A DNA stretch of 50,450 nucleotides from Burkholderiales bacterium. GTDB taxonomy: Bacteria; Pseudomonadota; Gammaproteobacteria; Burkholderiales; Burkholderiaceae_C. The notes under the pieces were generated by a model. It worked only from the letters and a program-made list of their open reading frames with translations, ran no database searches and was not told where the DNA came from. Of this stretch, positions 2,344-46,091 are shown piece by piece. Every line of letters starts with the position of its first letter. Position 1 is the first letter of the stretch. The translations under genes and the position numbers were made by a program. The stretch covers positions 1 to 50,450 of the forward strand of contig JACPYV010000139.1 in assembly GCA_016195825.1 (NCBI GenBank). The letters run 5' to 3'.

Positions 2344-3365
2344 TCGAGACCTCGCAGCTTGGGGTCAAGCGCGTCGCGCAGCGCATCCGTGAACAACGCA
2401 AACGCGGTGACAAAAACGGCCATGAAGCCGGCCACGACGGCCAGTTGCCACCAGTAGCCCAGGATCAGCTCGTTCTGTGCCTCGGCCAGCATGGTTCCCC
2501 AGGACACCTGGTCCACGCCCACGCCCAGGCCCAGGTAGCTGAGGATGACCTCGCTCTTGATGAAGCTGACCACATGCAGCGACAGCTGCACCAGCGCCAC
2601 GTGCGACACGTTGGGCAGGATGTGCCTGAACATGCGCGACCACTGGCTGGCGCCGATGGCCTCGGCCGAGCGCACGTATTCGCGCACGCGGTGCTTCATG
2701 AACTCGGCGCGGATGAGGCGGTAGATGCCGGTCCAGCCGGTCAGCGCGAGGATGAGCACCACCGAGCCCACGCCGCGGTGGAAGATGGCCGCGAACGCGA
2801 AGATCAGCAGGATGCTGGGGATGGCGGTGAAGACGTTGTAGACCCACTCCAGCAGGTCACCGACCTTGCCGCCGAAAAAGCCCGACACGGCGCCCAGCAT
2901 GGTCCCGATCAGCGTCGCCACAAGGGCCGCGGCCAGGCCCACAAAGATGGACACCTCGGCGCCCTTGATGACCTTGGCCAGCACATCGCGGCCCAGGCGG
3001 TCGCCGCCCAGAGGCAGCGTCTCGGCCTTCGTGATCTCGTCGGTCTTGAAGGCCTTGGCCCGCTCGGCCCATTCCGCGTAGCGGGGGCTGAGCGGGTCGA
3101 TGTCCGACAGGTCCACGTTCGGGCCCTTGGGCGCGGCGATGGTGCCGGTATCTTCGGCCGGCTGCGGGCCCAGCAGCGTGGGCGGCGCGTTGGGCACGCC
3201 GACTTCCTTCTGCCAGCCCGAGGCGACCAGTTGGGTCGCGGCCAGCAGCACGAGCACGAGGAAGGCGCCGACGATGGCCATGGAGATGACGCCCACGCGG
3301 TCGGTCTTCAGCCGCCGCCAGGAGGCAGCCCACACGCCGCCGGAAGAATTCGACACGGCGCTCAT
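2340..3365 (-). CDS. ABC transporter permease, OppC/YejE type
   Basis: A 341-residue inner-membrane permease, the second of the two channel subunits. It has an N-terminal membrane segment (~18-45), a long periplasmic stretch and then a five-helix permease domain from about residue 125. The EAA-type loop that contacts the ATPase is visible (EYVRSAEAIGAS, then ILPNV). The end, DALRDALDPKLRG, is typical of the OppC family. The start overlaps the upstream permease stop by ATGA and the stop overlaps the ATPase start, so translation is probably coupled. Confidence 0.92.
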
Positions 3366-4300
3366 TTGAGGACCACCCGTGGGTCGACGAGTTTGTACAG
3401 CAGGTCGACAAGAAGGTTGACCGTCATCGTCAGCGCGGCCAGGTAGATGGCGAAGGCCTGGATGACGGGGTAGTCGCCGCGGTTGACGGCCAGCAGCAGC
3501 TCGCGGCCCAGGCCGGGGATGGAGAAGAACACCTCGATCAGGAACGACCCCACCAACACGCCGGGCAGCAGCACCGACACATTGGTCAGGATCGGGATCA
3601 TCGCGTTACGCAGCACGTGCTTGAGCAGCACCGTGCCCTCGGTCATGCCCTTGGCGCGCGCGGTGCGCACGTAGTCGTGGCCGATCTCGTCGAGGAAGAA
3701 GCTGCGGTAAAGGCGGATCTGAGGCGCCAGCGACACGGCCACCGCGACCAGCACCGGCAGCGGCGCATAGGTCGTCAGGTTGGTCCAGTGGCTGCCCGTC
3801 CAGCCCTGCACGGGGAACCAGCCGAGCCGGAAGGCGAACACGTATTGCGCCAGGATGACGTAGACCAGCAGCGAGATGGATACGGCCACGGTCGTGCAGA
3901 TCATCACGGCGCGGTCGGTCAGGCTGCCGCGCACGGTGGCCACGGCCATCGCGAACGGGATGGCCAGCATCACTTCGAGGACCAGGATGGGCAGCGTCAC
4001 CGTTAGCGTGGCCGGCAGGCGCGTCGCGAACAGGTTGGCGACCGACTCGTTCGTAGCCCAGCTCTTGCCCCAGTCGAAGCTGACGATCTGCTTGATGAAG
4101 ATCCACAGCTGCTCCCAGACAGGCTTGTTCAGGCCCAGCTGTTCGCGGATGGCATCGATCTGCTCGGGGCTCGCGTTCAGGCCGCCGAGGATGATGGCCG
4201 GATCGCTGCCGAAATACTTGAACAGGAAGAACACCAGCAGCACGACGCCGAGCAGCGTCGGGATCATCTGCCACAGGCGTCGGACGAGATAGGCCGCCAT
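3362..4300 (-). CDS. ABC transporter permease, OppB/YejB type
   Basis: A 312-residue inner-membrane permease, first gene of the minus-strand transporter operon. It begins with the classic DppB/OppB pattern (YLVRRLWQMIPTLLGV, one membrane helix). It then has the periplasmic loop with REQLGLNKPVWEQ, five more helices and the EAA loop DYVRTARAKGM...VLLKHVLRNAMIPI. The family ending VDLLYKLVDPRVVLK is intact, so the gene looks full length. It is divergent from two solute-binding protein genes, which are its likely partners. Confidence 0.92.
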   Translation of the reverse strand: MAAYLVRRLWQMIPTLLGVVLLVFFLFKYFGSDPAIILGGLNASPEQIDAIREQLGLNKPVWEQLWIFIKQIVSFDWGKSWATNESVANLFATRLPATLTVTLPILVLEVMLAIPFAMAVATVRGSLTDRAVMICTTVAVSISLLVYVILAQYVFAFRLGWFPVQGWTGSHWTNLTTYAPLPVLVAVAVSLAPQIRLYRSFFLDEIGHDYVRTARAKGMTEGTVLLKHVLRNAMIPILTNVSVLLPGVLVGSFLIEVFFSIPGLGRELLLAVNRGDYPVIQAFAIYLAALTMTVNLLVDLLYKLVDPRVVLK

Positions 4301-4320
4301 TCAGGGCTCCAGAAACCACG

Positions 4321-4343
4321 AACCCCGCCGTGGCAGCGGGGTT
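4321..4343. promoter_or_regulatory. Perfect hairpin in the leader of the permease operon
   Basis: An 8-base perfect inverted repeat (AACCCCGC / GCGGGGTT) with a 7-base loop sits 21 bases upstream of the OppB-type start codon, inside the presumed leader of the minus-strand operon. It could be an operator or an RNA hairpin that tunes translation. No T-run follows on either strand. Confidence 0.4.
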
Positions 4344-4358
4344 GCACGAGAAAACGGG

Positions 4359-4414
4359 GCGGAGTCTATGCGAGCGCCGACGCCTGCCGGCATGCCGGTT
4401 TCACTAGACTCCGC
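4359..4414. promoter_or_regulatory. Divergent promoter pair between permease operon and binding-protein genes
   Basis: The same 10-mer, TAGACTCCGC, occurs once on each strand: plus at 4405-4414 and minus at 4368-4359. Each reads as a -10 box (TAGACT) followed by a start-site region and points towards its own operon. The two -10 boxes are about 37 bases apart, back to back. No good -35 boxes are seen, so activator-dependent or extended -10 promoters are possible. Confidence 0.4.
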
Positions 4415-4442
4415 GACTTTCCCGCCCACGCCGCGCCCTCCG

Positions 4443-6239
4443 ATGAAGCTCCCGCCCCTGCTGACCGCCCTGCTGCTGGCCTGCGCGCTGACCGCCGCAC
4501 AAGCCCAGGACAAGGTACTGCGCTATGCCTTCAACGTCGCCGAGACCGGCTTCGACCCGGCCCAGATCACCGACCTGTACTCCAAGGCCATCGCCGCCGG
4601 CATCTTCGACGCGCCGCTGGAATACGACTTCGGCGCCCGCCCGTTCAAGCTGCGCCCGGCCACGCTGGCGGAGATGCCGGAGATCAGCGCCGACTTCAAG
4701 ACCATCACGATGCGGGTCAAACCCGGCATCTACTTCTCCGACGACCCGGCGTTCAAGGGCGCCAGGCGCGAGCTGACCGCCGCCGACTACGTCTACAGGA
4801 TCAAGCGCCACTACGACCCGCGCTGGAAGAGCGGCAACCTCTACCTGCTGGAGAACGTCAAGATCGTGGGCCTGTCGGAGCTGCGCAGCGAGTTGATGAA
4901 GGCCAGGAAGCCCTTCGACTACGACCGCCCGGTGGAGGGGCTGAAGACGCTGGACCGCTACACCTTCCAGCTCAAGCTTGGCGTGGCCGACCCGCGGTTC
5001 ATCTACCAGTTCAGCGATGCCGGCTTCCTGGGCGCCATGGCGCGCGAGGTGGTCGAGTTCTACGGCGACAAGGTCATGGAGCACCCGGTCGGCACCAATG
5101 CCTGGCGGCTGGGCGAATGGCGGCGCAGCTCGCGCGTCGTACTCGAGAAGAACCCGAACTTCCGCGACCAGCGCTACGCCGAGATCGCGCCGCCGGACGC
5201 CAGCGACAAGCTCAAGGCCGAGGTCGCCGCGTTGCAGGGCAGGAAGCTGCCGCTGGTGGACCGCGTCGAGATCGACATCATCGAGGAGGCCCAGCCGCGC
5301 TGGCTGTCCTTCCTGCGCGGCGAGGCCGACCTCATCGAAGAGGTGCCCATCGACTTCGCCAGCGTGGCCATGCCCGGCAACCACCTGGCCCCCAACCTGG
5401 CCAAGCAGGGCATCACGATGACGCGCTACCCGCGCGCCGACATCTCGCTGAGCTACTTCAACATGGAGGACCCGGTCGTCGGCGGCTACACGCCTGAGCG
5501 CATCGCACTGCGCCGGGCCATCAACCTGGCGGTGGACCTGGACAAGGAGATCCGCCTGGTGCGTCGTGGCCAGGCGCTGAAGAGCCAGGGGCCGGTGCCG
5601 ACCACGGTGTTCGGCTTCGACCCGGCCTTCAAGTCCGAGATGAGCGAATACGGCCTCGCCAAGGCCAAAGCACTGCTGGACATGTACGGCTACAAGGACG
5701 TCGACGGCGACGGCTGGCGCGAGCAGCCCGATGGCAAGCCGCTGACCATCGAATACTCGACGCTGGCCGACGGCGAACGCCGTCAGCTGGCCGAGCAGTG
5801 GCAGAAGAACATGACGGCCCTGGGCATCCGCATGACGTTCAAGATCGGCAAGTTCCCCGAGCAGCTCAAGGCCGCCAACGCCGGCAAGCTGCAGATGTGG
5901 GGCGTGGGCTGGGTGGGGTCGACGCCGGATGGCGACACCTTCCTGGCACTGGGCTCCAGCGCGGCCAAGGGCAAGGCCAACAAGGCGCGCTTCGACCTGC
6001 CGGCCTTCGAGGCCCTCTACGAGAAGCAGAAGTCCCTGCCCGACGGCCCCGAGCGGCTGGCGCTGATGACCGAGGGCCAGCGCCTGCTGGTGGCCTACGC
6101 GCCGTACAAGTTCCACGTGCACCGCATCTGGACCGACATGGCCCAGCCCTGGGTCAGGGGCTACAGCCGCAACATCTTTGTGCGCGACTTCTGGAAGTAC
6201 ATCGACGTCGAGCCCGCCGCCAGCCCGAAGGCCAAGTGA
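4443..6239 (+). CDS. ABC solute-binding protein, family 5 (first of two)
   Basis: A 598-residue periplasmic binding protein that presumably delivers peptides or a similar ligand to the divergent permeases. The ATG at 4443 is chosen because a signal peptide (MKLPPLLTALLLACALTAAQA) begins there. The frame is open further upstream, but that stretch is proline-rich and has no signal character. SBP_bac_5 hallmarks are present: ETGFDPAQITDLYS early, then FSDDPAF, DYVYRIKRHYDP, EHPVGTNAWRLGEWRR and a C-terminal YKFHVHRIWTD. Its stop overlaps the next start as TGATG. The next protein is a clear paralogue, so two ligands or two affinities may share one membrane complex. Confidence 0.9.
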   Translation: MKLPPLLTALLLACALTAAQAQDKVLRYAFNVAETGFDPAQITDLYSKAIAAGIFDAPLEYDFGARPFKLRPATLAEMPEISADFKTITMRVKPGIYFSDDPAFKGARRELTAADYVYRIKRHYDPRWKSGNLYLLENVKIVGLSELRSELMKARKPFDYDRPVEGLKTLDRYTFQLKLGVADPRFIYQFSDAGFLGAMAREVVEFYGDKVMEHPVGTNAWRLGEWRRSSRVVLEKNPNFRDQRYAEIAPPDASDKLKAEVAALQGRKLPLVDRVEIDIIEEAQPRWLSFLRGEADLIEEVPIDFASVAMPGNHLAPNLAKQGITMTRYPRADISLSYFNMEDPVVGGYTPERIALRRAINLAVDLDKEIRLVRRGQALKSQGPVPTTVFGFDPAFKSEMSEYGLAKAKALLDMYGYKDVDGDGWREQPDGKPLTIEYSTLADGERRQLAEQWQKNMTALGIRMTFKIGKFPEQLKAANAGKLQMWGVGWVGSTPDGDTFLALGSSAAKGKANKARFDLPAFEALYEKQKSLPDGPERLALMTEGQRLLVAYAPYKFHVHRIWTDMAQPWVRGYSRNIFVRDFWKYIDVEPAASPKAK

Positions 6240-33721: not shown

Positions 33722-33806
33722 GCGCTGGCGGGCGGCCAGCGGGCATTCAGCCCGCCCGGCGGCGCCGGGCTGGCAACATGCCGGGTTGCCAGCCCCATCT
33801 GCCTCC

Positions 33807-34985
33807 ATGACCGACGCCCCTGCCCGCACCCGCTGGGCCCTCGTGCTGCTCCTGTGCGCCTGCGGCGTGCTTGCCGGAGGCCAGTTCGCCAAGATCTCGG
33901 TCGAGTTCATCCGGCTGCAGGCGGCCTATGGCGTGTCACCCGCCGTCATGGGGCTGGTGCTGTCCACCGTGGGCATGGTGGGGCTGATGTGCGGCGTGGT
34001 GACGGGCTGGCTGGCGCCGCGGGTGGGCTACCGCCGCCTGCTGCTGGCCGGGCTGGGCGGCGGTGCGCTGCTGTCCGGCCTGCAAGCGCTGCTGCCGCCG
34101 TTCGGGCTGTTCTGGGCCAGCCGGGTGCCCGAGGGCGCTGCCCACCTGGCCATCATGGTGGCCACCCCCACGCTGCTCATCCGCAGCAGCGCCCTGCACC
34201 ACCGCACCGCCGTGATGGGCCTGTGGACCACGGTCGTGGGGCTGTCCTTCGCCGTGATGTCGGGGGTGGACCGGCTGCTGCCCGCCGGCCTGGGCCCGCG
34301 CGAGGCGTTGGCCGGCCACGGGCTGCTGCTGGCGCTGGCGGCCCTGGCCGTGCGTGCCTCGGTGGCAGAGGTCGGCGCTGAAGCGACCTCGGCGCTGCCA
34401 CCCGCCCCACGCGGCGTGCTGGCCCTGCATCGCGAGGCCTACGCCGACCTGCGCACCGCATTGCCGGGCCTGGGCTTTTTCTTCTATGCCTTCCCCACCA
34501 TCGCGCTGATCACCTTCGTGCCCCGCTTTGCCGGCCAGGGCAGCGCTGGCTTCCAGGCCACCCTGCCGCTGATGGCCACTGCCGGAACCCTGTTGGCCGG
34601 GTGGGCGGCCCGCCGCTTCGCCGGCGGCGCAGCCCTGTTGCGCGGGGCCTACGGAGCTTTTGCCTTGTCGGCCTCGGCATTGCTTGCCGCTGCCCTCGCC
34701 GGCTTCACCACCGAGGCGCTGGCCCTGCTGACGCTGACCTGCGCCGGTTTTTGCGGCGGCGCGGCGGCCACCCTCATCCCTCAGCTCAACCCCACGCCTT
34801 CGGCCCAAGCCCGCGCCTCGGGCGTGCTGGTGCAGTTGGGCAACCTCGGTTCGGTCAGCGGCCCACCCCTGTTTGCGGCCCTGGCCGACCGCTTCGCCCT
34901 GCCCGGCCTGGCCGGCCTGGCGGTGGTGACGGCCATCGTGGCGCTGGCGGTGCTGGGGCGTCTGGGACGACGGCTCGGCGCCTGA
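33807..34985 (+). CDS. MFS transporter
   Basis: A 392-residue twelve-helix major facilitator transporter of the CynX/NarK-like branch. The loop between helices 2 and 3 reads GWLAPRVGYRRLLLAG, the family signature. ALADRF marks the equivalent loop in the second half. The ATG at 33807 is preferred to an in-frame TTG at 33786. The substrate is unknown and the flanking genes give no hint. Confidence 0.85.
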   Translation: MTDAPARTRWALVLLLCACGVLAGGQFAKISVEFIRLQAAYGVSPAVMGLVLSTVGMVGLMCGVVTGWLAPRVGYRRLLLAGLGGGALLSGLQALLPPFGLFWASRVPEGAAHLAIMVATPTLLIRSSALHHRTAVMGLWTTVVGLSFAVMSGVDRLLPAGLGPREALAGHGLLLALAALAVRASVAEVGAEATSALPPAPRGVLALHREAYADLRTALPGLGFFFYAFPTIALITFVPRFAGQGSAGFQATLPLMATAGTLLAGWAARRFAGGAALLRGAYGAFALSASALLAAALAGFTTEALALLTLTCAGFCGGAAATLIPQLNPTPSAQARASGVLVQLGNLGSVSGPPLFAALADRFALPGLAGLAVVTAIVALAVLGRLGRRLGA

Positions 34986-35115
34986 CCCGGCCCCACTCAG
35001 GCGCATGAGTTGCGCCAGATTACACACAGCCTTCGCGTAAACCCCAGGCCCACTTCGCCACCGCCGTGAGCCTCGCGCCCAGGCCCGCATGGCGTTATTC
35101 CTGTTTTGCATGACC

Positions 35116-35164
35116 CCACCGATCCCGGTGGTTACGGCGTGATTACATTGGATTCGACAATCCA
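35116..35164. promoter_or_regulatory. Inverted repeats upstream of the PEP carboxykinase gene
   Basis: Two perfect small inverted repeats occur here: CCACCG/CGGTGG (35116-35131, 4-base loop) and TGGATT/AATCCA (35149-35164, 4-base centre). They lie in the 250-base gap before the gene. They may be operators or leader hairpins; I see no decisive promoter. Confidence 0.35.
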
Positions 35165-35235
35165 CCTCCCGGGCGAGGTGTGCTTGGGCCAGCTCCGACA
35201 GCTGCCCCAAACACATCACCATGATTGGAGCTCCC

Positions 35236-36876
35236 ATGAACCAACCCGCGATGCAGGGCTTGCGCCTGAACCTGCCCGCCTACGTCAAGAACGCCCGGCT
35301 GATCGCCTGGGTGGCCGAGATCGCGGCCTTGACCGAGGCCGCCGACGTCTACTGGTGCGACGGCAGTACCGAGGAATACCAGCGGCTGTGCGAACAGCTC
35401 GTCGCCGCCGGCACGTTCAAGAAGCTCAACCCCGCCCTGCGCCCCGGCAGCTACCTGGCCAACTCCGACCCCAGCGACGTCGCCCGCGTCGAGGACCGGA
35501 CCTACATCTGCTCCGAGCGCAAGGAAAACGCCGGCCCGACCAACAACTGGATGGCCCCGGCCGAGATGCGCGAGCTGCTGCAGACCGGTGACAAGGCGCT
35601 GTTCAAGGGCTGCATGCGAGGCCGCACGCTTTATGTCGTGCCCTTCAGCATGGGCCCTCTGGGCTCGCCCATCGCGCACATCGGCGTGGAACTGAGCGAC
35701 AGCCCCTATGTCGCCGTCAATATGCGCACGATGACGCGCATGGGTCGCGCGGTGATCGAGCTGCTGGGTACCGAGGGCGACTTCGTGCCCTGCGTGCACA
35801 CGGTGGGCGCGCCGCTGGAAGCCGGCCAGGCCGACGTGAGCTGGCCCTGCAACAAGACCAAGTACATCGTCCACTATCCCGAGACGCGCACCACCATCGG
35901 CGACGACATCGCCTGGATCAAGCCGGGCGCCGACGGCAAGCTGTACGCCATCAACCCCGAGGCAGGCTACTTCGGCGTCGCCCCCGGCACCAACTCGCAC
36001 ACCAACCCCAACTGCATGGCCAGCCTGGAACGCGACGTGATCTTCACGAACGTGGCCCTGACCGATGACGGCGACGTGTGGTGGGAAGGCATGACCGACG
36101 CGCCACCGGCCCACGCCATCGACTGGCAGGGCAAGGACTGGACGCCCGCCATTGCCAAGGAGACCGGCGCCAAGGCCGCACATCCGAATGCGCGCTTCAC
36201 GGTCGCCGCGACCAACAATCCGGCGCTGGACGAGAACTGGGACAACCCCGCCGGTGTCGCGATCGACGCCTTCATCTTCGGCGGCCGCCGCTCCACCACC
36301 GTGCCGCTGGTGACCGAGGCGCGCGACTGGACTGAAGGCGTCTACATGGCCGCCACCATGGGCAGCGAGACCACCGCCGCCGCGGCCGGCCAGCAGGGCA
36401 TCGTGCGCCGCGACCCGTTCGCGATGCTGCCCTTCATGGGCTACAACATGGCCGACTACTTCCAGCACTGGCTGGACCTGGGCGCCAAGCTGCAAGCGGT
36501 CTGTGAAAAGACAGGCGCCAAGCTGCCGGCCATCTACTGCGTCAACTGGTTCCGCAAGGGCGCCGATGGCAAGTTCGTCTGGCCTGGCTACGGCGAGAAC
36601 ATGCGCGTGCTGAAGTGGATGCTGGACCGCCTGGAAGGCAAGGGCGGCGGCGAGGAGCATGTGTTCGGCGTGACACCGGGCTACGGCGACCTGAACTGGG
36701 ACGGCCTGGACTTCTCGCAGGAGAAGTTCGACACCGTGACCCGCATCGACGCTGCCGAGTGGCATGCCGAGATGAAGCTGCACGACGAGCTGTTCGCACA
36801 GCTGGCGCAGGGCCTGCCGCAGGCGCTGCCCGCCACCAAGGCCAGGATCGAAGCCAGGCTGGCCGAGCTGGGCTGA
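35236..36876 (+). CDS. pckG: GTP-type PEP carboxykinase with internal in-frame deletion
   Basis: A 546-residue product, against about 600-620 for the family, which converts oxaloacetate and GTP to PEP in gluconeogenesis. The N-terminal half is normal ([18 protein letters not shown]). The C-terminal half is also normal ([45 protein letters not shown]). Between Arg218 and Thr219 (35889/35890) about 79 residues are missing. In the family that stretch holds GYGGN, GKKC with the metal-binding Lys, the metal-binding His (AEHML) and the GTP P-loop FPSACGKTN. The frame is intact on both sides. As written the enzyme should be inactive. The ATG at 35236 follows GGAG and is preferred to one at 35221. 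Confidence 0.9.
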
Positions 36877-36898
36877 CCGGCGCTGTACTCCATCTGCA

Positions 36899-36924
36899 GC
36901 GGGCGCCTTCGGGCGCCCGTTTTC
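36899..36924 (+). terminator. Rho-independent terminator after pckG
   Basis: A perfect GC stem (CGGGCGCC / GGCGCCCG) with a TTCG tetraloop is followed at once by TTTT. It lies 23 bases after the stop and is the clearest intrinsic terminator in the window. Confidence 0.9.
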
Positions 36925-36980
36925 GTTGGTGTCGGCGGCGCTCGCGGGCCCGAGCGGCACCCGAATTGCACCGCAATCGA

Positions 36981-36994
36981 TGTCATCGATGTCA
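36981..36994. promoter_or_regulatory. LacI-type operator 1, TonB/trehalase operon
   Basis: TGTCATCGATGTCA has the central CG and near-perfect symmetry of LacI-family operators (CATCGATG core). Its centre is 43 bases, about four helical turns, upstream of the second site at 37022-37039, so one dimer pair could bind both on the same face. Confidence 0.55.
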
Positions 36995-37007
36995 CGCACC
37001 CGCCACA

Positions 37008-37036
37008 TTGGTGTTTACCCAAATGACATCGATAAC
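37008..37036 (+). promoter_or_regulatory. Candidate promoter of the trehalose operon
   Basis: TTGGTG (37008-37013), 17 bases, then GATAAC (37031-37036). The -10 lies inside the second LacI-type operator, as expected for repression. Both boxes are weak matches. Confidence 0.4.
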
Positions 37037-37039
37037 ATT
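37022..37039. promoter_or_regulatory. LacI-type operator 2, TonB/trehalase operon
   Basis: AATGACATCGATAACATT is an 18-base even palindrome with central CG, flanked by AATG and CATT, and mismatched at only two symmetric pairs. This is the typical LacI/GalR-family operator form. Together with site 1 it also forms an 11-base inverted repeat (ATCGATGTCAT at 36976-36986 with ATGACATCGAT at 37023-37033). Confidence 0.65.
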
Positions 37040-37121
37040 TGCGCTCAAAGTCCCGTACATCGAGAGTCGATGGCGGCCGCGCCGGCTTTCGGGACGTACA
37101 ACAACCACCGGAGACAAACCC

Positions 37122-39653
37122 ATGCCCAGCAGCTTCAATGCCGCGCCGCGCGCCTGCGCCCGCCTCGTCCGCACCGCCTTCCGTCCCCAGCTGATCGCTC
37201 TTGCCGCCGCAGCCCTTTGCGGCGCGACCCAGGCGCAGGACGCCGCCAAGCCCACCGACAAGTCGCCCGAAGTCAAGGAACTCGACGCCGTGGTCGTCAC
37301 CGGCACCGCGCGCCGCGAAGGCGTGCGCAAGCTGGAGGCCGGCTTCTCGATCACCACCGCCACCGAAGAACAGATCAAGCAGGCAGCGCCCACCAGCACG
37401 GCCGACATCCTGAAGACCGTGCCAGGCATCTTTGTCGAGACCTCAGGCGGCCAGGCCGGCGCCAACATCCGCGTGCGCGGCTTCCCGACGCCCGGTGACG
37501 GCCCCTACTCCACCTTTCAGCTCAACGGCGCGCCGCTGTACCACCTGCCCACGTTGAGCTTCTTCGAGCACTCGCAGCTGTTCCGCCTGGATGACACCAT
37601 CGACCGCATGGAGGTGCTGCGCGGCGGTCCCAGCCCCATCTTCGGCAGCGGCCAGCCCGGCGTGACGGTCAACTTCATCCAGAAGGACGGCCGCAACCCC
37701 GAAGGCAGCCTGCGCGTGACGACCGGCACCGGCAATCTCAAGCGCGTGGACGGCGTCTACGCCGGCAAGCTCAGCGACCAGTGGAACGTGATGGTCGGCG
37801 GCTTCTGGCGCCAGAGCGACGGCGTGCGCGACACGCAGTTCCCCGCCGACGACGGCGGTCAGGCCAACGTGGTGCTGAGCCGCAAGCTGGAGACGGGGAG
37901 TCTGCAGCTCTACGCCCGTGCGCTGCGCGACCGCAACGCCTTCATCACGGCGATCCCCGTCGTGGGCGGCAGCGACGGCAAGAGCGTGTCCAGCTACCCC
38001 GGCTTCAACGCGAGCAAGGACTACTTCTACGGCAACGAACTGCGCAGCATCGTGCTGGAGACCGGCCGCGCGACCGGCCGCACGCTGCCCAGCGGCAAGC
38101 CCGAGATCCTGCGCAGCACGGTGACCAAGGACCTCGCCGACGGCCGCGGCGCCGACGTGCAGACCTATGGCGCCAACCTCGACACCAAGCTGGGCGACTG
38201 GACGCTGACCAACAAGCTCAGCCACACGACCGGCGACACGCCGACCTACGCGCTGTTCTCCGGCGCGAACCCGCAGACGCTGTCCAGCTACATCACGTCG
38301 CAGGTCACCGCCGCCAACGCGGACGCTGCTGTCGTGACCGCTGCCGGCCGCGCGGCCACGACCGGCACGGCCACCTTCACCAACGGCGGCGGTGCGGTAG
38401 CCGGCAGCACGCCGGTCATCGTCAACGGCATGTGGGCGGTGGACAAGGCGCTGCGCTCGACCAGCAACGAGACCCGACTGTCACGCGAGATCGCGCCCGG
38501 CAACAACCTCACCGTGGGCCTGTACCTCGCCGGCTACAGCTCGCACGATGTCTGGACGCTGGGCCAGGCGCAGCTGATGACGGTGCAGTCGCACGCCCGC
38601 CTCGTCGACGTGCAGCTGGACAACGGCGTCAAGGCCTCGCGCAACGGCTACGTCACGCCGCCGTTCTCCTTCAACCTCGATGCGTCCTACAGCGGCAACA
38701 CGCACGCCTTTTTCGTCGCCGACGAGTGGCAGCTGAGCAAGGAGCTGCGCGTGGACCTGGGCGCGCGCCGCGAGACCCAGCGCATCACCGGCACCATCGC
38801 CAACGTCAGCAACGGTGACCTGGATGCCGACCCGACGACGATCTACAACAACAACCTCGCCTACTTCAACGGCACGAACACGCTGATCGACAGCAAGCTG
38901 ACGCGCAACTCCTTCACCGGCGGCGCCAACTACGCCCTGAGCCGCGAGTTCAGCGCCTTCGTGCGGGTCAACAAGGGCCACCGCCTGCCCGACTTCGACG
39001 TGCTGCGCGGCCGTGGCGCCAACGAGACCAAGGACTCTGTCGAGGACATCACGCAGTACGAGATCGGCCTGAAGACCGCAACCAAGCTCTACAGCGCCTT
39101 CCTGACGGCCTATGCCAACAAACTGACCAACTCGCAGACCCAGCAGTTCACGAATGCCGGCAACGTCGTGCTGCGCCCCAACAGCAAGGCCACCGGTCTG
39201 GAGTTCGAGCTGGCGCTGCGTCCGGGCTACGGTTTCGAGATCGCCGCGACGGGCAACTTCCAGGATGCCAAGTACAAGGACTTCCAGCAGTTCACCGGCA
39301 ACCGCGTGGAGCGGGCGCCGAAGTTCCAGGCGCGCTTGACACCCAGCTGGCAGACGCAGACCGGCTTCGGCCAGCTGCGCACCTTCGCGACCTTCAGCCA
39401 CGTGGGCGAGCGCTTCGCGGACCAGACCAACACGCTCAAGCTGCCGGCCTACCGCACGATCGACGCGGGCGCCGTGTTCGCGATGGACAACGGCCTGGAG
39501 CTGCGCCTGACCGGCACCAACCTGACCAACAAGATCGGCCTGACGGAAGGCAACTTCCGCGTGCCGGGCCAGGGCGTCGGGCAGGACGGCGTGTTCTTGG
39601 CGCGACCCTTGTTCGGCCGGGCCTACGAGCTCAGCGTCGGCTTCCAGTTCTGA
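37122..39653 (+). CDS. TonB-dependent receptor, probable trehalose uptake
   Basis: An 843-residue outer-membrane receptor. A signal peptide (~1-39, ending ATQAQ) is followed by the TonB-box region LDAVVVTGTARR (~54-65). Next are the plug (~75-185: TADILKTVPGIFVETSGGQAG, RVRGF, MEVLRGGPSPIFGSGQPG) and a 22-strand-type barrel ending in the terminal aromatic SVGFQF. The ATG at 37122 follows GGAG; a longer open frame upstream runs through the operators and is not coding. MFS and trehalase genes follow with almost no gap, so disaccharide import is inferred. Confidence 0.93.
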   Translation: MPSSFNAAPRACARLVRTAFRPQLIALAAAALCGATQAQDAAKPTDKSPEVKELDAVVVTGTARREGVRKLEAGFSITTATEEQIKQAAPTSTADILKTVPGIFVETSGGQAGANIRVRGFPTPGDGPYSTFQLNGAPLYHLPTLSFFEHSQLFRLDDTIDRMEVLRGGPSPIFGSGQPGVTVNFIQKDGRNPEGSLRVTTGTGNLKRVDGVYAGKLSDQWNVMVGGFWRQSDGVRDTQFPADDGGQANVVLSRKLETGSLQLYARALRDRNAFITAIPVVGGSDGKSVSSYPGFNASKDYFYGNELRSIVLETGRATGRTLPSGKPEILRSTVTKDLADGRGADVQTYGANLDTKLGDWTLTNKLSHTTGDTPTYALFSGANPQTLSSYITSQVTAANADAAVVTAAGRAATTGTATFTNGGGAVAGSTPVIVNGMWAVDKALRSTSNETRLSREIAPGNNLTVGLYLAGYSSHDVWTLGQAQLMTVQSHARLVDVQLDNGVKASRNGYVTPPFSFNLDASYSGNTHAFFVADEWQLSKELRVDLGARRETQRITGTIANVSNGDLDADPTTIYNNNLAYFNGTNTLIDSKLTRNSFTGGANYALSREFSAFVRVNKGHRLPDFDVLRGRGANETKDSVEDITQYEIGLKTATKLYSAFLTAYANKLTNSQTQQFTNAGNVVLRPNSKATGLEFELALRPGYGFEIAATGNFQDAKYKDFQQFTGNRVERAPKFQARLTPSWQTQTGFGQLRTFATFSHVGERFADQTNTLKLPAYRTIDAGAVFAMDNGLELRLTGTNLTNKIGLTEGNFRVPGQGVGQDGVFLARPLFGRAYELSVGFQF

Positions 39654-39661
39654 CGCGCAAG

Positions 39662-40936
39662 ATGGCCGGCCCCGATCACCCAGCAGCCCTCGACATGAGC
39701 ACCACTTCCATTCCCCTGTCGAGCGGCGGACTGCGCATCCGGCTGGCCATCATCCTGACCTACATGCTGTTCGGCGCCATGCTCAACAGCGTCGGCGCCG
39801 TCAACCTGCTGGTCGTGCAGACCCTCGCCGTGCCCCGTGCCGAGGCCGCGCTGCTGGACGCGTGGAAGGACCTGCCCATCGCGCTGACGTCCTTCCTTGT
39901 CGCCTCGCTGCTGCCCCGTCTGGGTCTCAAGCGGTCCATGCTGCTGGCGGTCGCCGCCGTCGGCGCGGCCTGCCTGGCCATGCCGGTGCTATCGGCCTTC
40001 TGGGCCATCAAGCTGCTGTTCTGCACGCTGGGCGCCGGCTTCGCGCTGGTGAAGGTGTCGGCCTATTCCATGATCGGCCTCGTCACCCAGGACCGTGCCG
40101 GCCATGCGCGCTTCACCAACCTGCTGGAAGGCTTGTTCATGGTCGGCGTGCTGGGCGGCTTCCTGCTGTTCAGCAACGCCGCCCACGCCAAGGGCACCGG
40201 CTGGCTGCAGGTCTACCCCATGCTTGCGGCCATCGCCGCCGCGGCCTTCGTGCTGCTGCTGGCCAGCCCGCTGGACGAAGGCCCCGTCCAGTCGCCCGAC
40301 ACCACGCTGCGGCAGGACCTGCTGGCGATGGCACCACTGCTCAGGCTGGGCCTGGTCGTCGTCTTCCTGTTGTCCGCCTTCCTCTACGTGCTGATCGAGC
40401 AAGGCCTGTCGACCTGGCTGCCCAGCTTCAACAACGAGGTGCTGCACCTGCCCACCGCGATGAGCGTGGGCCTGGCTGTCATCATGCCGGCGACGACCGC
40501 ACTGGGGCGGTTGACCAGCGCCGCCGTGATCGGCCGACTGGGCTGGTTCGCAGTCGTCATGGCCTGCCTCGTCGGTATCGCGGCGCTCATCCTCGTGGCG
40601 CTGCCGCTGTCGCGCGGCGCCGCGCCGCTGGGTGGCGACGTCGGCTGGCTCAACGCACCGGCGGCCGCCTACCTGCTGCCTCTGACCGGCCTGCTGCTGG
40701 CGCCCATCTACCCGGCCATCAACTCCGCCATGCTCAGCGCGCTGCCTCAGCGCCAGCACGCTGCCATGACCGGCCTCATCGTCGTCTTCTCGGCGCTGGG
40801 CGGCACGCTGGGCAGCTTCATCACCGGCCGCCTCTTCGTCGCCTTCGACGGCGCTACCGCCTTCGCTCTGCTGCTGGTCCCTGTCGCGGCGCTGGCCGTC
40901 TCGCTCTCCCGGCTGCGCCGGGCTCTCTCCTCATGA
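39662..40936 (+). CDS. MFS sugar transporter of the trehalase operon
   Basis: A 424-residue, twelve-helix MFS protein lying 8 bases after the TonB receptor gene. It has features of the fucose/glucose-galactose (FucP-like) branch: AAVGAACLAMPV, then VKVSAYSMIGLV and APIYPAINSAMLSALPQRQHAAMTG. It probably carries the periplasmic disaccharide into the cytoplasm. Start is uncertain between ATG 39662 and ATG 39695 (MSTTSIPLSS). Its stop overlaps the trehalase start (ATGA). Confidence 0.88.
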   Translation: MAGPDHPAALDMSTTSIPLSSGGLRIRLAIILTYMLFGAMLNSVGAVNLLVVQTLAVPRAEAALLDAWKDLPIALTSFLVASLLPRLGLKRSMLLAVAAVGAACLAMPVLSAFWAIKLLFCTLGAGFALVKVSAYSMIGLVTQDRAGHARFTNLLEGLFMVGVLGGFLLFSNAAHAKGTGWLQVYPMLAAIAAAAFVLLLASPLDEGPVQSPDTTLRQDLLAMAPLLRLGLVVVFLLSAFLYVLIEQGLSTWLPSFNNEVLHLPTAMSVGLAVIMPATTALGRLTSAAVIGRLGWFAVVMACLVGIAALILVALPLSRGAAPLGGDVGWLNAPAAAYLLPLTGLLLAPIYPAINSAMLSALPQRQHAAMTGLIVVFSALGGTLGSFITGRLFVAFDGATAFALLLVPVAALAVSLSRLRRALSS

Positions 40937-42504
40937 CCCCCTCCCGCCCGCGAGACCTGCTCGCCGCCGCGCCCCTCCAAGCCGTCGCGCCCACCGCGCA
41001 CAGCACCGCGGCCACGCCCTACGAGCTGTACGGCGAACTGTTCGTCGCCGTGCAGATGACGCGCGTCTTCGGCGACGGCAAGAGCTTCGTCGACGCGCGG
41101 CCCAGGAGCGCGCCGGCCCTGATCCGCGCACGCTTCGAGGTCGAACGCCGCGGATCCGGCTTCTCGCTGGCCGACTTCGTGCACGCCCATTTCGTGCTGC
41201 CGGAGCATGACGCCGCCATCGGACCGCAGTTGGGCATCCGCGAGCACATCCAGGCCCTGTGGCCGCTGCTGGTGCGCGAACACGCCCAGGCGCAGGAGGG
41301 CGAAAGCCTGCTCGCGCTGCCCCATCCCTACGTCGTGCCGGGCGGGCGCTTCCGCGAGCTGTACTACTGGGACAGCTACTTCACGATGCTGGGCTTGGTG
41401 GCCGATGGCCGGCGCGACCTGGCCGAGCACATGCTCGCCAACTTCGCGCACCTGATCGCCACCCACGGCTTCATCCCCAACAGCAGCCGCAGCTACATGC
41501 TGAGCCGCTCGCAGCCGCCGTTCTTCTTCAAGATGGTGGAGCTGCTGCACGCCGACGACTCGGCGGCTGGCTTTGCAACTCACCTGACTGCCCTGAAGGC
41601 CGAGCACGCCTTCTGGATGGACGGCGAGGCCACGCTCGCGCCCGGCCAGGCCCACCGCCGCGTGCTGCGCACGGCCGATGGCGCACTGTTGAACCGCTAC
41701 TGGGACGACCGCTGCACGCCGCGTGAGGAGAGCTGGCGCGAGGACGTGCTGACGGCCGAGGCCGGTGGCCGCACGCCCACCGACGTCTGGCGCGACATTC
41801 GCGCCGCCGCGGAAAGCGGCTGGGACTTCTCCGGCCGCTGGTGCGCCGATCCGGCCGACATCGCCACCATCGAGACCACGGCGCTTGCGCCGGTGGACCT
41901 GAACGCGCTGCTGGGCGGCCTCGAAAGCGCCATCGCGCTGGGCGCCGCGCGCAGCGGCGACACGGTCACGGCCACGGCCTTCGACGCGCGCGCCGTGGCC
42001 CGCCGCCGGCTGCTGCAGACCCGACTCTGGCGCCCGGACGTCGGCCACTTCGCCGACCTGAACTGGCGCGACCCGCTGGACCCACGCCCGTTGACGGCGG
42101 CCGCCCTGGTGCCGCTGTATCTCGGCCTGGCCACCCAGCCCCAGGCCGACGCGATGGCCGCCCAGGTGCAGCGCCACTTGATCGGCGCCAATGGCCTGCT
42201 GACCACGGACGTCGACACCGGCCAGCAGTGGGACGCTCCCAACGGCTGGGCACCACTGCAATGGATGGCCGTGCAAGGCCTGGCCCGCTACGGCCACCCG
42301 GCCCTGGCGCGCGACATCGCCGAGCGCTGGTGCGCCAGCGTGCACCGCGTCTACCTGGCCACCGGCCGGCTGCTGGAAAAGTACGACGTCGCCAAGGACC
42401 GCCCGGGTGGCGGCGGCGAGTACGAGACCCAGGACGGCTTCGGCTGGACGAACGGCGTCTACGTCGCGTTCAAGGACGGCTTGCTGAAAGCCCCGGCCGC
42501 CTGA
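40933..42504 (+). CDS. Alpha,alpha-trehalase, GH37
   Basis: A 523-residue trehalase that splits trehalose into two glucose units. Both family signatures are present: PGGRFRELYYWDSYF at 136-150 and QWDAPNGWAPLQ at 432-443. Also visible are the VFGDGKSFVDARP segment (~45-57) and the glycine-rich GGGGEYETQDGFGWTNGV (~492-509). The likely acid is Asp298 (GWDFS) and the base Glu496. There is no signal peptide, so it is cytoplasmic, like TreF. It completes a receptor/permease/hydrolase operon. Confidence 0.95.
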   Translation: MTPSRPRDLLAAAPLQAVAPTAHSTAATPYELYGELFVAVQMTRVFGDGKSFVDARPRSAPALIRARFEVERRGSGFSLADFVHAHFVLPEHDAAIGPQLGIREHIQALWPLLVREHAQAQEGESLLALPHPYVVPGGRFRELYYWDSYFTMLGLVADGRRDLAEHMLANFAHLIATHGFIPNSSRSYMLSRSQPPFFFKMVELLHADDSAAGFATHLTALKAEHAFWMDGEATLAPGQAHRRVLRTADGALLNRYWDDRCTPREESWREDVLTAEAGGRTPTDVWRDIRAAAESGWDFSGRWCADPADIATIETTALAPVDLNALLGGLESAIALGAARSGDTVTATAFDARAVARRRLLQTRLWRPDVGHFADLNWRDPLDPRPLTAAALVPLYLGLATQPQADAMAAQVQRHLIGANGLLTTDVDTGQQWDAPNGWAPLQWMAVQGLARYGHPALARDIAERWCASVHRVYLATGRLLEKYDVAKDRPGGGGEYETQDGFGWTNGVYVAFKDGLLKAPAA

Positions 42505-42570
42505 GCCCCCTGATCCGAAGGATCGGCGCCACCCGTGCCGTCATCACCCCGGGCTAAGCTGCCGGCTCAC

Positions 42571-43394: not shown

Positions 43395-46091
43395 ATGCCA
43401 ACCCATTTCTCGCGCCTGCTTGGCGCCTTTGCCAGTCTGTGCCTGGTCGCCTCCCTGAGCGGCTGCGGCGGCGGTGGCAGCACCCCCGAAACCCCCACAC
43501 CCGCCCCCGCGGCCACCTGCCAGATCAGCGGCCAGGTGCTCAGCGCCGCTGACGCCAGCCCGGTGCCCGGCGCACGCATCACCGCCGCCGGCACCAGCAC
43601 CGTCAGTGACGCGCAGGGCCGCTTCACGCTCGGCAGCCTTGCACCCGCCAGCGCCACCGTCCTGCGCATCCAGGCAGACGGCCACCTCGACGCCGTGCTG
43701 CCGCTGCCCGTGACAGCCAACCAGGCCACCACCATCACTCAGCGCCTGGTGGCTGCCGGCAGCGCGCAGACCTTCAGCGCCGCCGCGCCCGGCACGCTGC
43801 GCGCCGCCAACTCGCTGGCCAGCGTGGACCTGCCGGCCGACGGCTTCGTCGTGGCCGGTGGCAGCACCGCGGCCACCGGCACGCTGACCGCAAGGCTCAG
43901 CGTCATCGACCCCGCCCGCGATCCCGCCGCCATGCCCGGCCGTTATGTCGCCAGCACCGGCCGCGCGATCGAGAGCTTCGGCGCCGTCACCGTGGACCTG
44001 CGCGACGCCGCCGGCAACCAGCTCAACCTGAAGGCCGGCGCCACCGCCACCGTGCGCATCCCGCTGTCCAGCCGCTCGGCCACGCCACCGGCCACGGTGC
44101 CGCTGTTCCACCTCGACGAGGCCACCGGCCAATGGGTGCAGGAGGGCCAGGCCACGCTGAAGATCACCGCCGAAGGCAGCTACTACGAAGGGACGGTCAG
44201 CCACTTCAGCAGCTGGAATGCCGACATGGAGATGGACACCATCTTCGTCAACGGCTGCGTCAACGACAGCGCCGGCAAGCCTGCCGTCTGGACTTATGTG
44301 CAAGCCACCGGCGTGGACTATTCGGGCATGGACGCCGCCGTGACCGATGCCGCGGGCAAGTTCCGCGTCGCCATCCGCAAGAATTCGCTGGCTGAACTGT
44401 TGGCCACGGCGGGCGACCGCAGCAGCGCGACCGTGCCTGTGGGCCCCTCGGCCACGGACATCACGCTGCCCAACTGCCTGGTGCTCGCCGACGCCGCCGC
44501 GCCCAAGCTGCTGGGCACGCTGGTGGACCGCACCGTGGTGGCCGGCCAGCAGGCCTACTTCCGCGTCAACGCCAGCGGCAGCGCGCTGCGCTACCAATGG
44601 CAGCGCAACGGCGCCGACCTGCCCGGCGAGACCTTCGACACCCTGAACCTCACCGCCCGCCTGGCGGACGACGGCGCCCGCTACAGCTGCGTGGTGCGCA
44701 ACGGCCTGGGCCAGGTCACCAGCGCCGCCGCCGTGCTGCACGTCAACCCGGCCACACTGCCAGTCATCACCGAGTCGCCGAGAAGCACCAGCGCACTCGT
44801 CGGCGCCACCGCCAGCTTCACCGCCACGGTCGCCGGCAGCGCGCCGCTCAGCTACCAGTGGCAGCGCAACGGCGTGGATATCGCCGGCGCCACGACGGCG
44901 TCCTACATCACGCCCGCGCTGACGCTGGCCGACCAGGGCGCCCGCTACCGCCTCGTGGTGCGCAATGCCTACGGGAACGCCACCAGCGCCGAAGCCACGT
45001 TGAGCGTCACCGCCACGGTGCTGGCCGCGCCCAGCATCACCAGCCAGCCCGCCGACCTCACCAAGGCCCCCGGCCAGACGGCCACCTTCACCGTGCTCGC
45101 CAGCGGCAACCCCGCGCCCACCTACCAGTGGCTGAAGAACGGCACCGCCATCACAGGCGCCACGTCGGCCGGCTACACCACGCCCGTGCTCACGCTGGCC
45201 GACAACGGTGCGGTCTACAGCGTGCGGCTCAGCAATTCGCAGGGCGAGCTGCTCAGCGCCAACGCGCTGCTGACCGTGCAGGCCGGCACCGGCAGCGAGT
45301 CCGACCAGGCCAACCTGATGCGCCTGCTGGGCGCCAGCGGCGTGTGGCTGCAGGCCATCAGCGCGCCGCTGGAGGTCAGCGACGATCAGGGCCGCGTGCT
45401 CGGCAGCGCCGCCGTGTGCCAGACGGGCAGCGTCAGCGCCACGCTGGGCGGCGCATCGCTCGTGGCGGGCCAGACCCTGCCGGCCAACGGCGTGCTGGCC
45501 ACCCGCTTCACCGACTGCGTCAGCGACGGCACCCGCTACAACGGGAGCGGCACAGCCGACTACCGCCTCAGCAGCCTGGCCGCGCCGGTCAACGGCAGCG
45601 CCACCATCACGCTGGCCAACCTGCGCATGGACGACGCGGGCGCCAACAGCGACTACACCGTGGACGGTGGCGCCAGCGTCTCGCTGGCCGGCAGCCTGGA
45701 CAGCGGCAGCCTCACGCAGACCGCCATCCTCACGCCGGCCAGCGGCACCAGCATCACCAACAACCTCCTCGGCCTGCGCGCCACACTGGCCGGCGGCAGC
45801 TTCACGGTCAGCAGCACGACGCGCACCAGCGACGACCAGCTCACCGCCTCGCGCGTCAGCTACAGCAACTTCGCCTTCAGCGTGGCCGGCACGCCCTACC
45901 TGGCCCAGGGCAGCCTGGCGCTGGTCTACAACGGCATCAACGGTGGACTGGCCAACGGCAACGGCGAGATCACGCTGTTCAGCAACAGCGTCAAGATCGG
46001 GCGGCTCTACTTCGCCAACGGTGGCTTGCAGATCGAGGTCAACGGCCGCGTGCAGCCATTCGGGGCCGTGCGGGCACGCGCGACTCGCTGA
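43395..46091 (+). CDS. Large lipoprotein with carboxypeptidase-regulatory and Ig-like domains
   Basis: An 898-residue lipoprotein. The lipobox LSGC lies at ~21-24, followed by a Gly/Pro/Thr linker. Residues ~42-120 form a carboxypeptidase-regulatory-like (CarboxypepD_reg) domain (ISGQVLSAADASPVPGARI). A beta-sandwich follows at ~130-275, and a second regulatory-like domain at ~280-365 has VTDAAGKFRVAI. Three Ig-like repeats start near 370, 455 and 545, each with YQW followed by G. The final ~265 residues are Ser/Thr/Asn-rich beta structure. Probably surface-exposed for adhesion or carbohydrate binding. No enzyme motif is seen. Confidence 0.87.
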   Translation: MPTHFSRLLGAFASLCLVASLSGCGGGGSTPETPTPAPAATCQISGQVLSAADASPVPGARITAAGTSTVSDAQGRFTLGSLAPASATVLRIQADGHLDAVLPLPVTANQATTITQRLVAAGSAQTFSAAAPGTLRAANSLASVDLPADGFVVAGGSTAATGTLTARLSVIDPARDPAAMPGRYVASTGRAIESFGAVTVDLRDAAGNQLNLKAGATATVRIPLSSRSATPPATVPLFHLDEATGQWVQEGQATLKITAEGSYYEGTVSHFSSWNADMEMDTIFVNGCVNDSAGKPAVWTYVQATGVDYSGMDAAVTDAAGKFRVAIRKNSLAELLATAGDRSSATVPVGPSATDITLPNCLVLADAAAPKLLGTLVDRTVVAGQQAYFRVNASGSALRYQWQRNGADLPGETFDTLNLTARLADDGARYSCVVRNGLGQVTSAAAVLHVNPATLPVITESPRSTSALVGATASFTATVAGSAPLSYQWQRNGVDIAGATTASYITPALTLADQGARYRLVVRNAYGNATSAEATLSVTATVLAAPSITSQPADLTKAPGQTATFTVLASGNPAPTYQWLKNGTAITGATSAGYTTPVLTLADNGAVYSVRLSNSQGELLSANALLTVQAGTGSESDQANLMRLLGASGVWLQAISAPLEVSDDQGRVLGSAAVCQTGSVSATLGGASLVAGQTLPANGVLATRFTDCVSDGTRYNGSGTADYRLSSLAAPVNGSATITLANLRMDDAGANSDYTVDGGASVSLAGSLDSGSLTQTAILTPASGTSITNNLLGLRATLAGGSFTVSSTTRTSDDQLTASRVSYSNFAFSVAGTPYLAQGSLALVYNGINGGLANGNGEITLFSNSVKIGRLYFANGGLQIEVNGRVQPFGAVRARATR

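What the first reader, a model, noticed from the sequence alone, without database searches (positions are those of the whole stretch)
35860..35920. PEP carboxykinase lacks its P-loop and metal ligands through a clean in-frame deletion
Read directly, the protein passes from HYPETR to TTIGDDIAW. In GTP-dependent PEPCKs these segments are separated by about 79 residues with the GYGGN/GKKC loop, the metal-binding Lys and His, and the GTP-binding P-loop FPSACGKTN. Both flanks are fully conserved, with no frameshift or stop. Three explanations: a recent inactivating deletion, an assembly error or edited sequence, or a protein kept for a non-catalytic role. Conservation elsewhere argues against an old pseudogene.
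Basis: partly seen in the sequence, partly recalled or inferred. Interest (0 to 1): 0.75.

Follow-up and report, generated by a model that had tools for sequence, protein, structure and literature searches.

The report
Metabolic enzyme gene missing its core
One copy of an ordinary bacterial metabolism gene (GTP-type PEP carboxykinase) lacks the 81-residue stretch that binds nucleotide and metal; it looks like a very recent gene-killing deletion, or an assembly error, and not a new kind of enzyme.

Summary
pckG (35221-36876, +, 551 aa) runs [12 protein letters not shown] at 35889/35890. All 16 congeneric genomes in which pckG was found carry the block missing here: 243 bp (81 codons) in 15, 267 bp in one, not 237. 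It holds GYGGN, GKKC, the AEHM histidine and the P-loop FPSACGKTN, so the product should be inactive (inference). The rest is untouched: 0 of 211 columns invariant in 28 relatives are changed, and amino-acid change is not raised. The deletion is therefore very young, or not real. It has 1 bp of microhomology. No second PEPCK and no copy of the block were found in this 93%-complete draft genome. A PEP-synthase/PPDK-type gene and two malic-enzyme-type genes are present. Absence of pckG recurs in the family: 9 of 224 good-quality genomes have no match. Best reading: a recent in-frame null allele. Main rival: an assembly artefact, which only reads can exclude. A kept non-catalytic role has no positive support. 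Ordinary; low interest.

The parts
35221..36876 (+). pckG, GTP-type PEP carboxykinase gene with an internal in-frame deletion (551 codons plus stop)
   Evidence: Pfam PF17297 260.2 bits and PF00821 451.4 bits; NCBIfam NF003253 803.1 bits against a cut-off of 504
35889..35890 (+). deletion junction: 243 bp (81 codons) present in relatives is absent here
   Evidence: alignment with 16 genus relatives; blastn pieces with 5 relatives break at 35887 or 35889 with 242-244 extra bases in the relative
35464..35505 (+). R-loop region [14 protein letters not shown], retained (which residues form the loop is recalled; position read off the translation)
36358..36414 (+). lid (omega-loop) region [19 protein letters not shown], retained (which residues form the lid is recalled; position read off the translation)
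35008..35220 (+). upstream region, part of the blastn alignments with relatives that run on into the gene (alignments begin at 35007-35035 in 4 of 5 relatives, at 33769 in G007)
37122..39653 (+). downstream TonB-dependent receptor gene with an open frame; next to pckG here and in G010, but separated by 20-26 kb in G005, G007, G008 and G009

Best explanation
A recent 243-bp in-frame deletion has knocked out the only pckG found in this genome. Shown: the encoded product lacks the GYGGN and GKKC loop, the AEHM histidine and the GTP-binding P-loop. Inferred: the protein is unstable or inert, and PEP from C4 acids would be made by malic enzyme to pyruvate and then by PEP synthase, gene candidates for both being in the genome. 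Inferred: the deletion arose by illegitimate joining with 1 bp of microhomology, after most of the divergence from its nearest known relatives, and kept the frame by chance (1 in 3).
For: The gap is seen in G000 only: 16 of 16 congeners in which pckG was found have the block. In 250 family genomes 239 match the intact query; of the 14 with split or weak matches that I re-examined, 10 cover the P-loop and in 4 the match stops before or after it; none shows an in-contig loss like this one. The deletion removes 57 columns invariant in 28 chosen relatives, while 0 of the 211 invariant columns outside it are changed. The window has 7 private replacements and 19 private synonymous codons, where about 61 replacements would be expected had the whole branch been neutral (3.23 non-synonymous sites per synonymous site); median pairwise dN/dS is 0.151 against 0.193 in 120 pairs among relatives. 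In 18,346 window bases aligned to at least 4 of 5 relatives, this is the only break in the middle of an identified gene (by eye). ATP-type PEPCK was found in 0 of 20 genus genomes, a PPDK_N match in 20 of 20, malic-enzyme matches in 19 of 20. pckG is not found in 3 of 19 congeners and in 9 of 224 good-quality family genomes. The best AlphaFold model has pLDDT 63.4 and pTM 0.60, against 76.1 and 0.81 for the intact relative.
Against: The absence of any decay is equally what an artefact would show. Only one genome of the species was at hand. The assembly is a 207-contig draft, 93.35% complete. Among the 14 re-examined family genomes, 3 of about 10 contig edges that cut this gene fall in residues 256-300 (G027, G241, G258), so this conserved stretch may be hard to assemble. 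The frame is kept, which a null allele does not need. The AlphaFold contrast is soft: the five intact models range from 44.8 to 76.1 in mean pLDDT, the five truncated ones from 59.0 to 63.4.
Confidence: 0.6

Rival explanations
1. Assembly or sequence artefact: the organism has an intact pckG and the contig joins the two flanks wrongly (chimeric reads, wrong gap closing, or a minority variant chosen by the assembler).
For: No sign of relaxed selection outside the gap; no relative examined shares it; fragmented, 93.35%-complete assembly; the missing block is denser in invariant columns than the rest (57 of 81 against 211 in the remainder), and 3 of about 10 contig edges cutting this gene in the re-examined draft genomes fall in residues 256-300.
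Against: Only 1 bp of microhomology and no exact direct repeat of 7 bp or more within 25 bp of the breakpoints, judged on the sequence of G010, so repeat collapse is unlikely; no Ns at the join; no other break in the middle of an identified gene in the aligned part of the window; the missing block is not found on another contig (best hit E 0.011, 37% identity over 38 residues).
Confidence: 0.34
2. The shortened protein is kept for a non-catalytic (pseudoenzyme) role.
For: Frame kept, upstream region still aligned to relatives, all 211 invariant columns outside the gap kept.
Against: Not shared by any relative examined, so there is no record of being kept through time; the block removed includes four whole strands and two helices of the intact model; retained conservation is explained by youth. 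Searches listed nothing on a bacterial PEPCK pseudoenzyme (listings only, two papers each).
Confidence: 0.05
3. Old pseudogene in decay.
For: Loss of catalytic motifs.
Against: Open frame, no change at invariant sites, ordinary dN/dS.
Confidence: 0.01

Closest known systems
GTP-dependent PEP carboxykinase (PckG; NCBIfam NF003253, Pfam PF17297 + PF00821), nearest solved chain 9e32
   Same: Both domains recognised, R-loop region, TTIGDD aspartates and lid region present; pckG in the same neighbourhood in the 5 congeners compared
   Different: Lacks 81 residues with the GYGGN/GKKC loop, the AEHM histidine and the P-loop
Recent loss-of-function (null) alleles in single strains (general knowledge, recalled)
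   Same: Single-genome deletion, no decay elsewhere, gene candidates for an alternative PEP-forming route present
   Different: Nothing notable; the in-frame length is a one-in-three outcome

Membership tests
GTP-dependent PEP carboxykinase (active enzyme) | Sequence similarity to the family over both domains | tested here: met
   Pfam and NCBIfam scores above curated cut-offs
GTP-dependent PEP carboxykinase (active enzyme) | P-loop FPSACGKTN that binds the nucleotide | tested here: not met
   Absent from the window protein, invariant in the 28 sequences of alignment A2; role of the P-loop from passages of PMC12529880
GTP-dependent PEP carboxykinase (active enzyme) | Metal-ligand Lys (GKKC) and His (AEHM) | tested here: not met
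   Both motifs lie in the deleted block; that they are the metal ligands is recalled
GTP-dependent PEP carboxykinase (active enzyme) | R-loop and lid | tested here: met
   Sequences retained; which residues form them is recalled
GTP-dependent PEP carboxykinase (active enzyme) | OAA to PEP activity | not testable with these tools
   needs an assay
Recent null allele / young pseudogene | Lesion absent from relatives, no decay elsewhere | tested here: met
Recent null allele / young pseudogene | Lesion present in the living organism's DNA | not testable with these tools
   needs reads or PCR

The most novel reading that the evidence does not exclude
The truncated PckG is expressed, folds without its nucleotide-binding core and serves a non-catalytic purpose, such as binding a partner or oxaloacetate.
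Probability: 0.03. Interest if true: 0.5.

Novelty: new member of a known kind. Interest (0 to 1): 0.12.

Why it matters
If real, it is one more case of a gluconeogenic entry point being lost in a lineage that still has gene candidates for the malic enzyme and PEP synthase bypass, caught at its very start. If an artefact, it is a caution against calling metabolic capacity from profile hits: the truncated gene still scores well above the curated cut-off for PEPCK (803.1 bits against 504), so a pipeline that relies on that cut-off alone would call the enzyme present.

Tried and rejected
A second PEPCK in the genome: not found, GTP type (one match only) or ATP type. A shared clade-level deletion: not found. 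Repeat-mediated deletion or repeat collapse: 1 bp of microhomology, no exact direct or inverted repeat of 7 bp or more within 25 bp of the breakpoints in G010; one exact 6-bp direct repeat (ACGGCT) and a few 8-10 bp matches with 1-2 mismatches exist, none of them at the join, and exact 7-mers occur at that spacing by chance in 29% of random places. The missing block on another contig: not found. pckG remnants at the matching locus of congeners G003 and G016: only weak tblastn hits (best E 0.19). There G003 has about 3 kb where the window has 33732-42553; the G016 contig end matches only up to window 33724 and then holds about 2.5 kb without a match. Plasmid records: 11 partial matches, none covering 80% of the query. 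Base composition around the gene: nothing unusual. One search was wasted on a wrong accession (PF03390, a carboxylate transporter family, in place of a malic enzyme family). Paper searches for Hylemonella PEPCK (no paper), a pckG pseudogene (2 papers), a natural PEPCK deletion (1 paper) and a PEPCK pseudoenzyme (2 papers) gave nothing that bears on it; only listings were seen. Passages of PMC12529880 and PMC8100219 were seen, not whole texts. No fold search was run.

Dropped or unseen rows: one search parsed 74 of 111 loci, two of them the window's own (the regular expressions missed 37: minus-strand copies and motif variants). One search kept 73 of 80 named loci with a complete frame. L092 (470-codon frame) was not followed. 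One search drew 250 genomes evenly from a larger family and lists only part of its match rows; genomes with a single match at E = 0 beyond the listing were not read row by row. In one search the match does not reach the P-loop in 4 of 14 genomes (G027, G058, G183, G241), so these say nothing about it. The alignment carried long N-terminal extensions; one search repeats the invariant count on 28 chosen relatives (9 of the 16 genus genomes and 19 of the 80 named loci). As a control, 15 of 16 intact congeners also show no change at sites invariant in all others, and G015 shows one.

Full report
Observation. The frame 35221-36876 on the + strand encodes 551 residues with no internal stop. It is a GTP-type PEP carboxykinase by Pfam (PF17297 and PF00821) and by NCBIfam (NF003253, 803.1 bits against a cut-off of 504). 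At 35889/35890 it passes from HYPETR to TTIGDDIAW. Against the best PDB chain, 9e32 (622 aa), phmmer gives two pieces, query 6-224 to chain 1-215 and query 223-548 to chain 295-621, whereas an intact congeneric protein, P0002, aligns to the same chain in one piece. The window is the whole of contig C192 of its genome, and the loci taken from that assembly are identical to it.

Size. In 15 of 16 genus relatives exactly 243 bp (81 codons) lie between the two flanks; in G018 it is 267 bp. The block contains GYGGN, GKKC, the AEHM histidine and FPSACGKTN. In 28 relatives 57 of its 81 columns are invariant. In the best AlphaFold model of P0002 (mean pLDDT 76.1) the block, residues 225-305, covers strands 225-229, 258-261, 263-269 and 275-281, helices 241-252 and 290-294, and the first residues of strand 304-309: more than a loop. 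The passages I saw of PMC12529880 say that the P-loop coordinates the nucleotide and the R-loop the substrate. That the GKKC lysine and the AEHM histidine are metal ligands is recalled.

Shared or not. In the genus search 17 of 20 genomes match, the window's own included; G003, G016 and G019 show no pckG. The 16 others all have the block. In the family search with the intact query 239 of 250 genomes match. Fourteen with split or weak matches were re-examined. Ten of them cover the P-loop. In the other four (G027, G058, G183, G241) the match stops before or after it, at contig edges for three, so they say nothing. None shows an in-contig loss of the block. Not every row was listed, so this is strong but not complete.

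Age. Outside the gap the gene shows no decay. None of 211 columns invariant in 28 chosen relatives is changed, and no site invariant in 89 other sequences is changed (15 of 16 intact congeners also show none, one shows one). The window has 7 private replacements and 19 private synonymous codons, ratio 0.37, inside the range of its congeners (0.08-1.33). With 3.23 non-synonymous sites per synonymous site, a whole terminal branch of neutral change would give about 61 replacements. Median dN/dS with relatives is 0.151, against 0.193 in the 120 pairs among relatives. So the deletion is younger than most of the branch to its nearest known relatives (about 90% DNA identity in this gene), or it is not real. 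This is a rough count, not a fitted branch model.

Real or artefact. Judged on G010, the join has 1 bp of microhomology and no exact direct or inverted repeat of 7 bp or more within 25 bp of the breakpoints, so repeat collapse is unlikely. In 18,346 window bases aligned to at least 4 of 5 congeners, the other indels found against all covering relatives are up to about 12 bp, and the other alignment breaks lie within about 50 bases of an end of a listed ORF (by eye). The block was not found elsewhere in the genome. Against this, the assembly is a 207-contig, 93.35%-complete draft, perhaps from a metagenome (inference). Of about 10 contig edges that cut this gene in the re-examined draft genomes, 3 fall in residues 256-300 (G027, G241, G258) and 7 elsewhere, so this conserved stretch may be somewhat prone to tangle assemblies. 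Reads would settle it; none are available here.

Consequence. No other GTP-type PEPCK was found in the genome and no ATP-type PEPCK in any of the 20 genus genomes. A strong PPDK_N match in a frame of about 820-900 codons, of PEP-synthase or PPDK type, is present in 20 of 20 (829 codons in the window's genome); I did not separate the two types. Malic-enzyme-type matches are present in 19 of 20, two of them in the window's genome. pckG is not found in 3 of 19 congeners, one of them only 83% complete, nor in 9 of 224 family genomes that are at least 90% complete and at most 5% contaminated. At the matching locus G003 lacks pckG and its downstream neighbours. Its absence is thus tolerated repeatedly, which makes a fresh null allele plausible. 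PMC8100219 (passages) gives gluconeogenesis as the main role of PEPCK in most organisms. The AlphaFold run on the truncated protein gives pLDDT 63.4 and pTM 0.60, with 11 of 13 ten-residue blocks from 211 to 340 under 50. The contrast with the intact relative is soft: its five models range from 44.8 to 76.1, and parts of its own C-terminal domain are near 60. It hints at, but does not prove, a protein that does not fold properly.

Verdict. The sequence feature is as described, with the size corrected to 243 bp. A very recent null allele is most likely (0.6), an assembly artefact second (0.34). A retained non-catalytic role is not excluded but has no positive support.

Noticed in passing
window 36876-36968: pckG and the TonB-dependent receptor gene are adjacent here and in G010, but 20-26 kb of other DNA lies between them in G005, G007, G008 and G009: a place of insertion or loss in the genus.
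   Followed up: no
window 43395-46088: Gene for an 898-residue protein with immunoglobulin-like domains and a carboxypeptidase regulatory-like domain. Its region is unaligned in the five congeneric loci compared but is matched in congener G003.
   Followed up: no
L137 (G003:C25): Congener G003, about 100% complete, shows no pckG; about 3 kb stands where the window has 33732-42553. The same genome has a second PPDK_N match containing one TAA.
   Followed up: partly
L092 (Piscinibacter aquaticus KACC 15278), about 3001-4865: The pckG relative there gives only a 470-codon open frame, perhaps a frameshift in the gene or the assembly.
   Followed up: no
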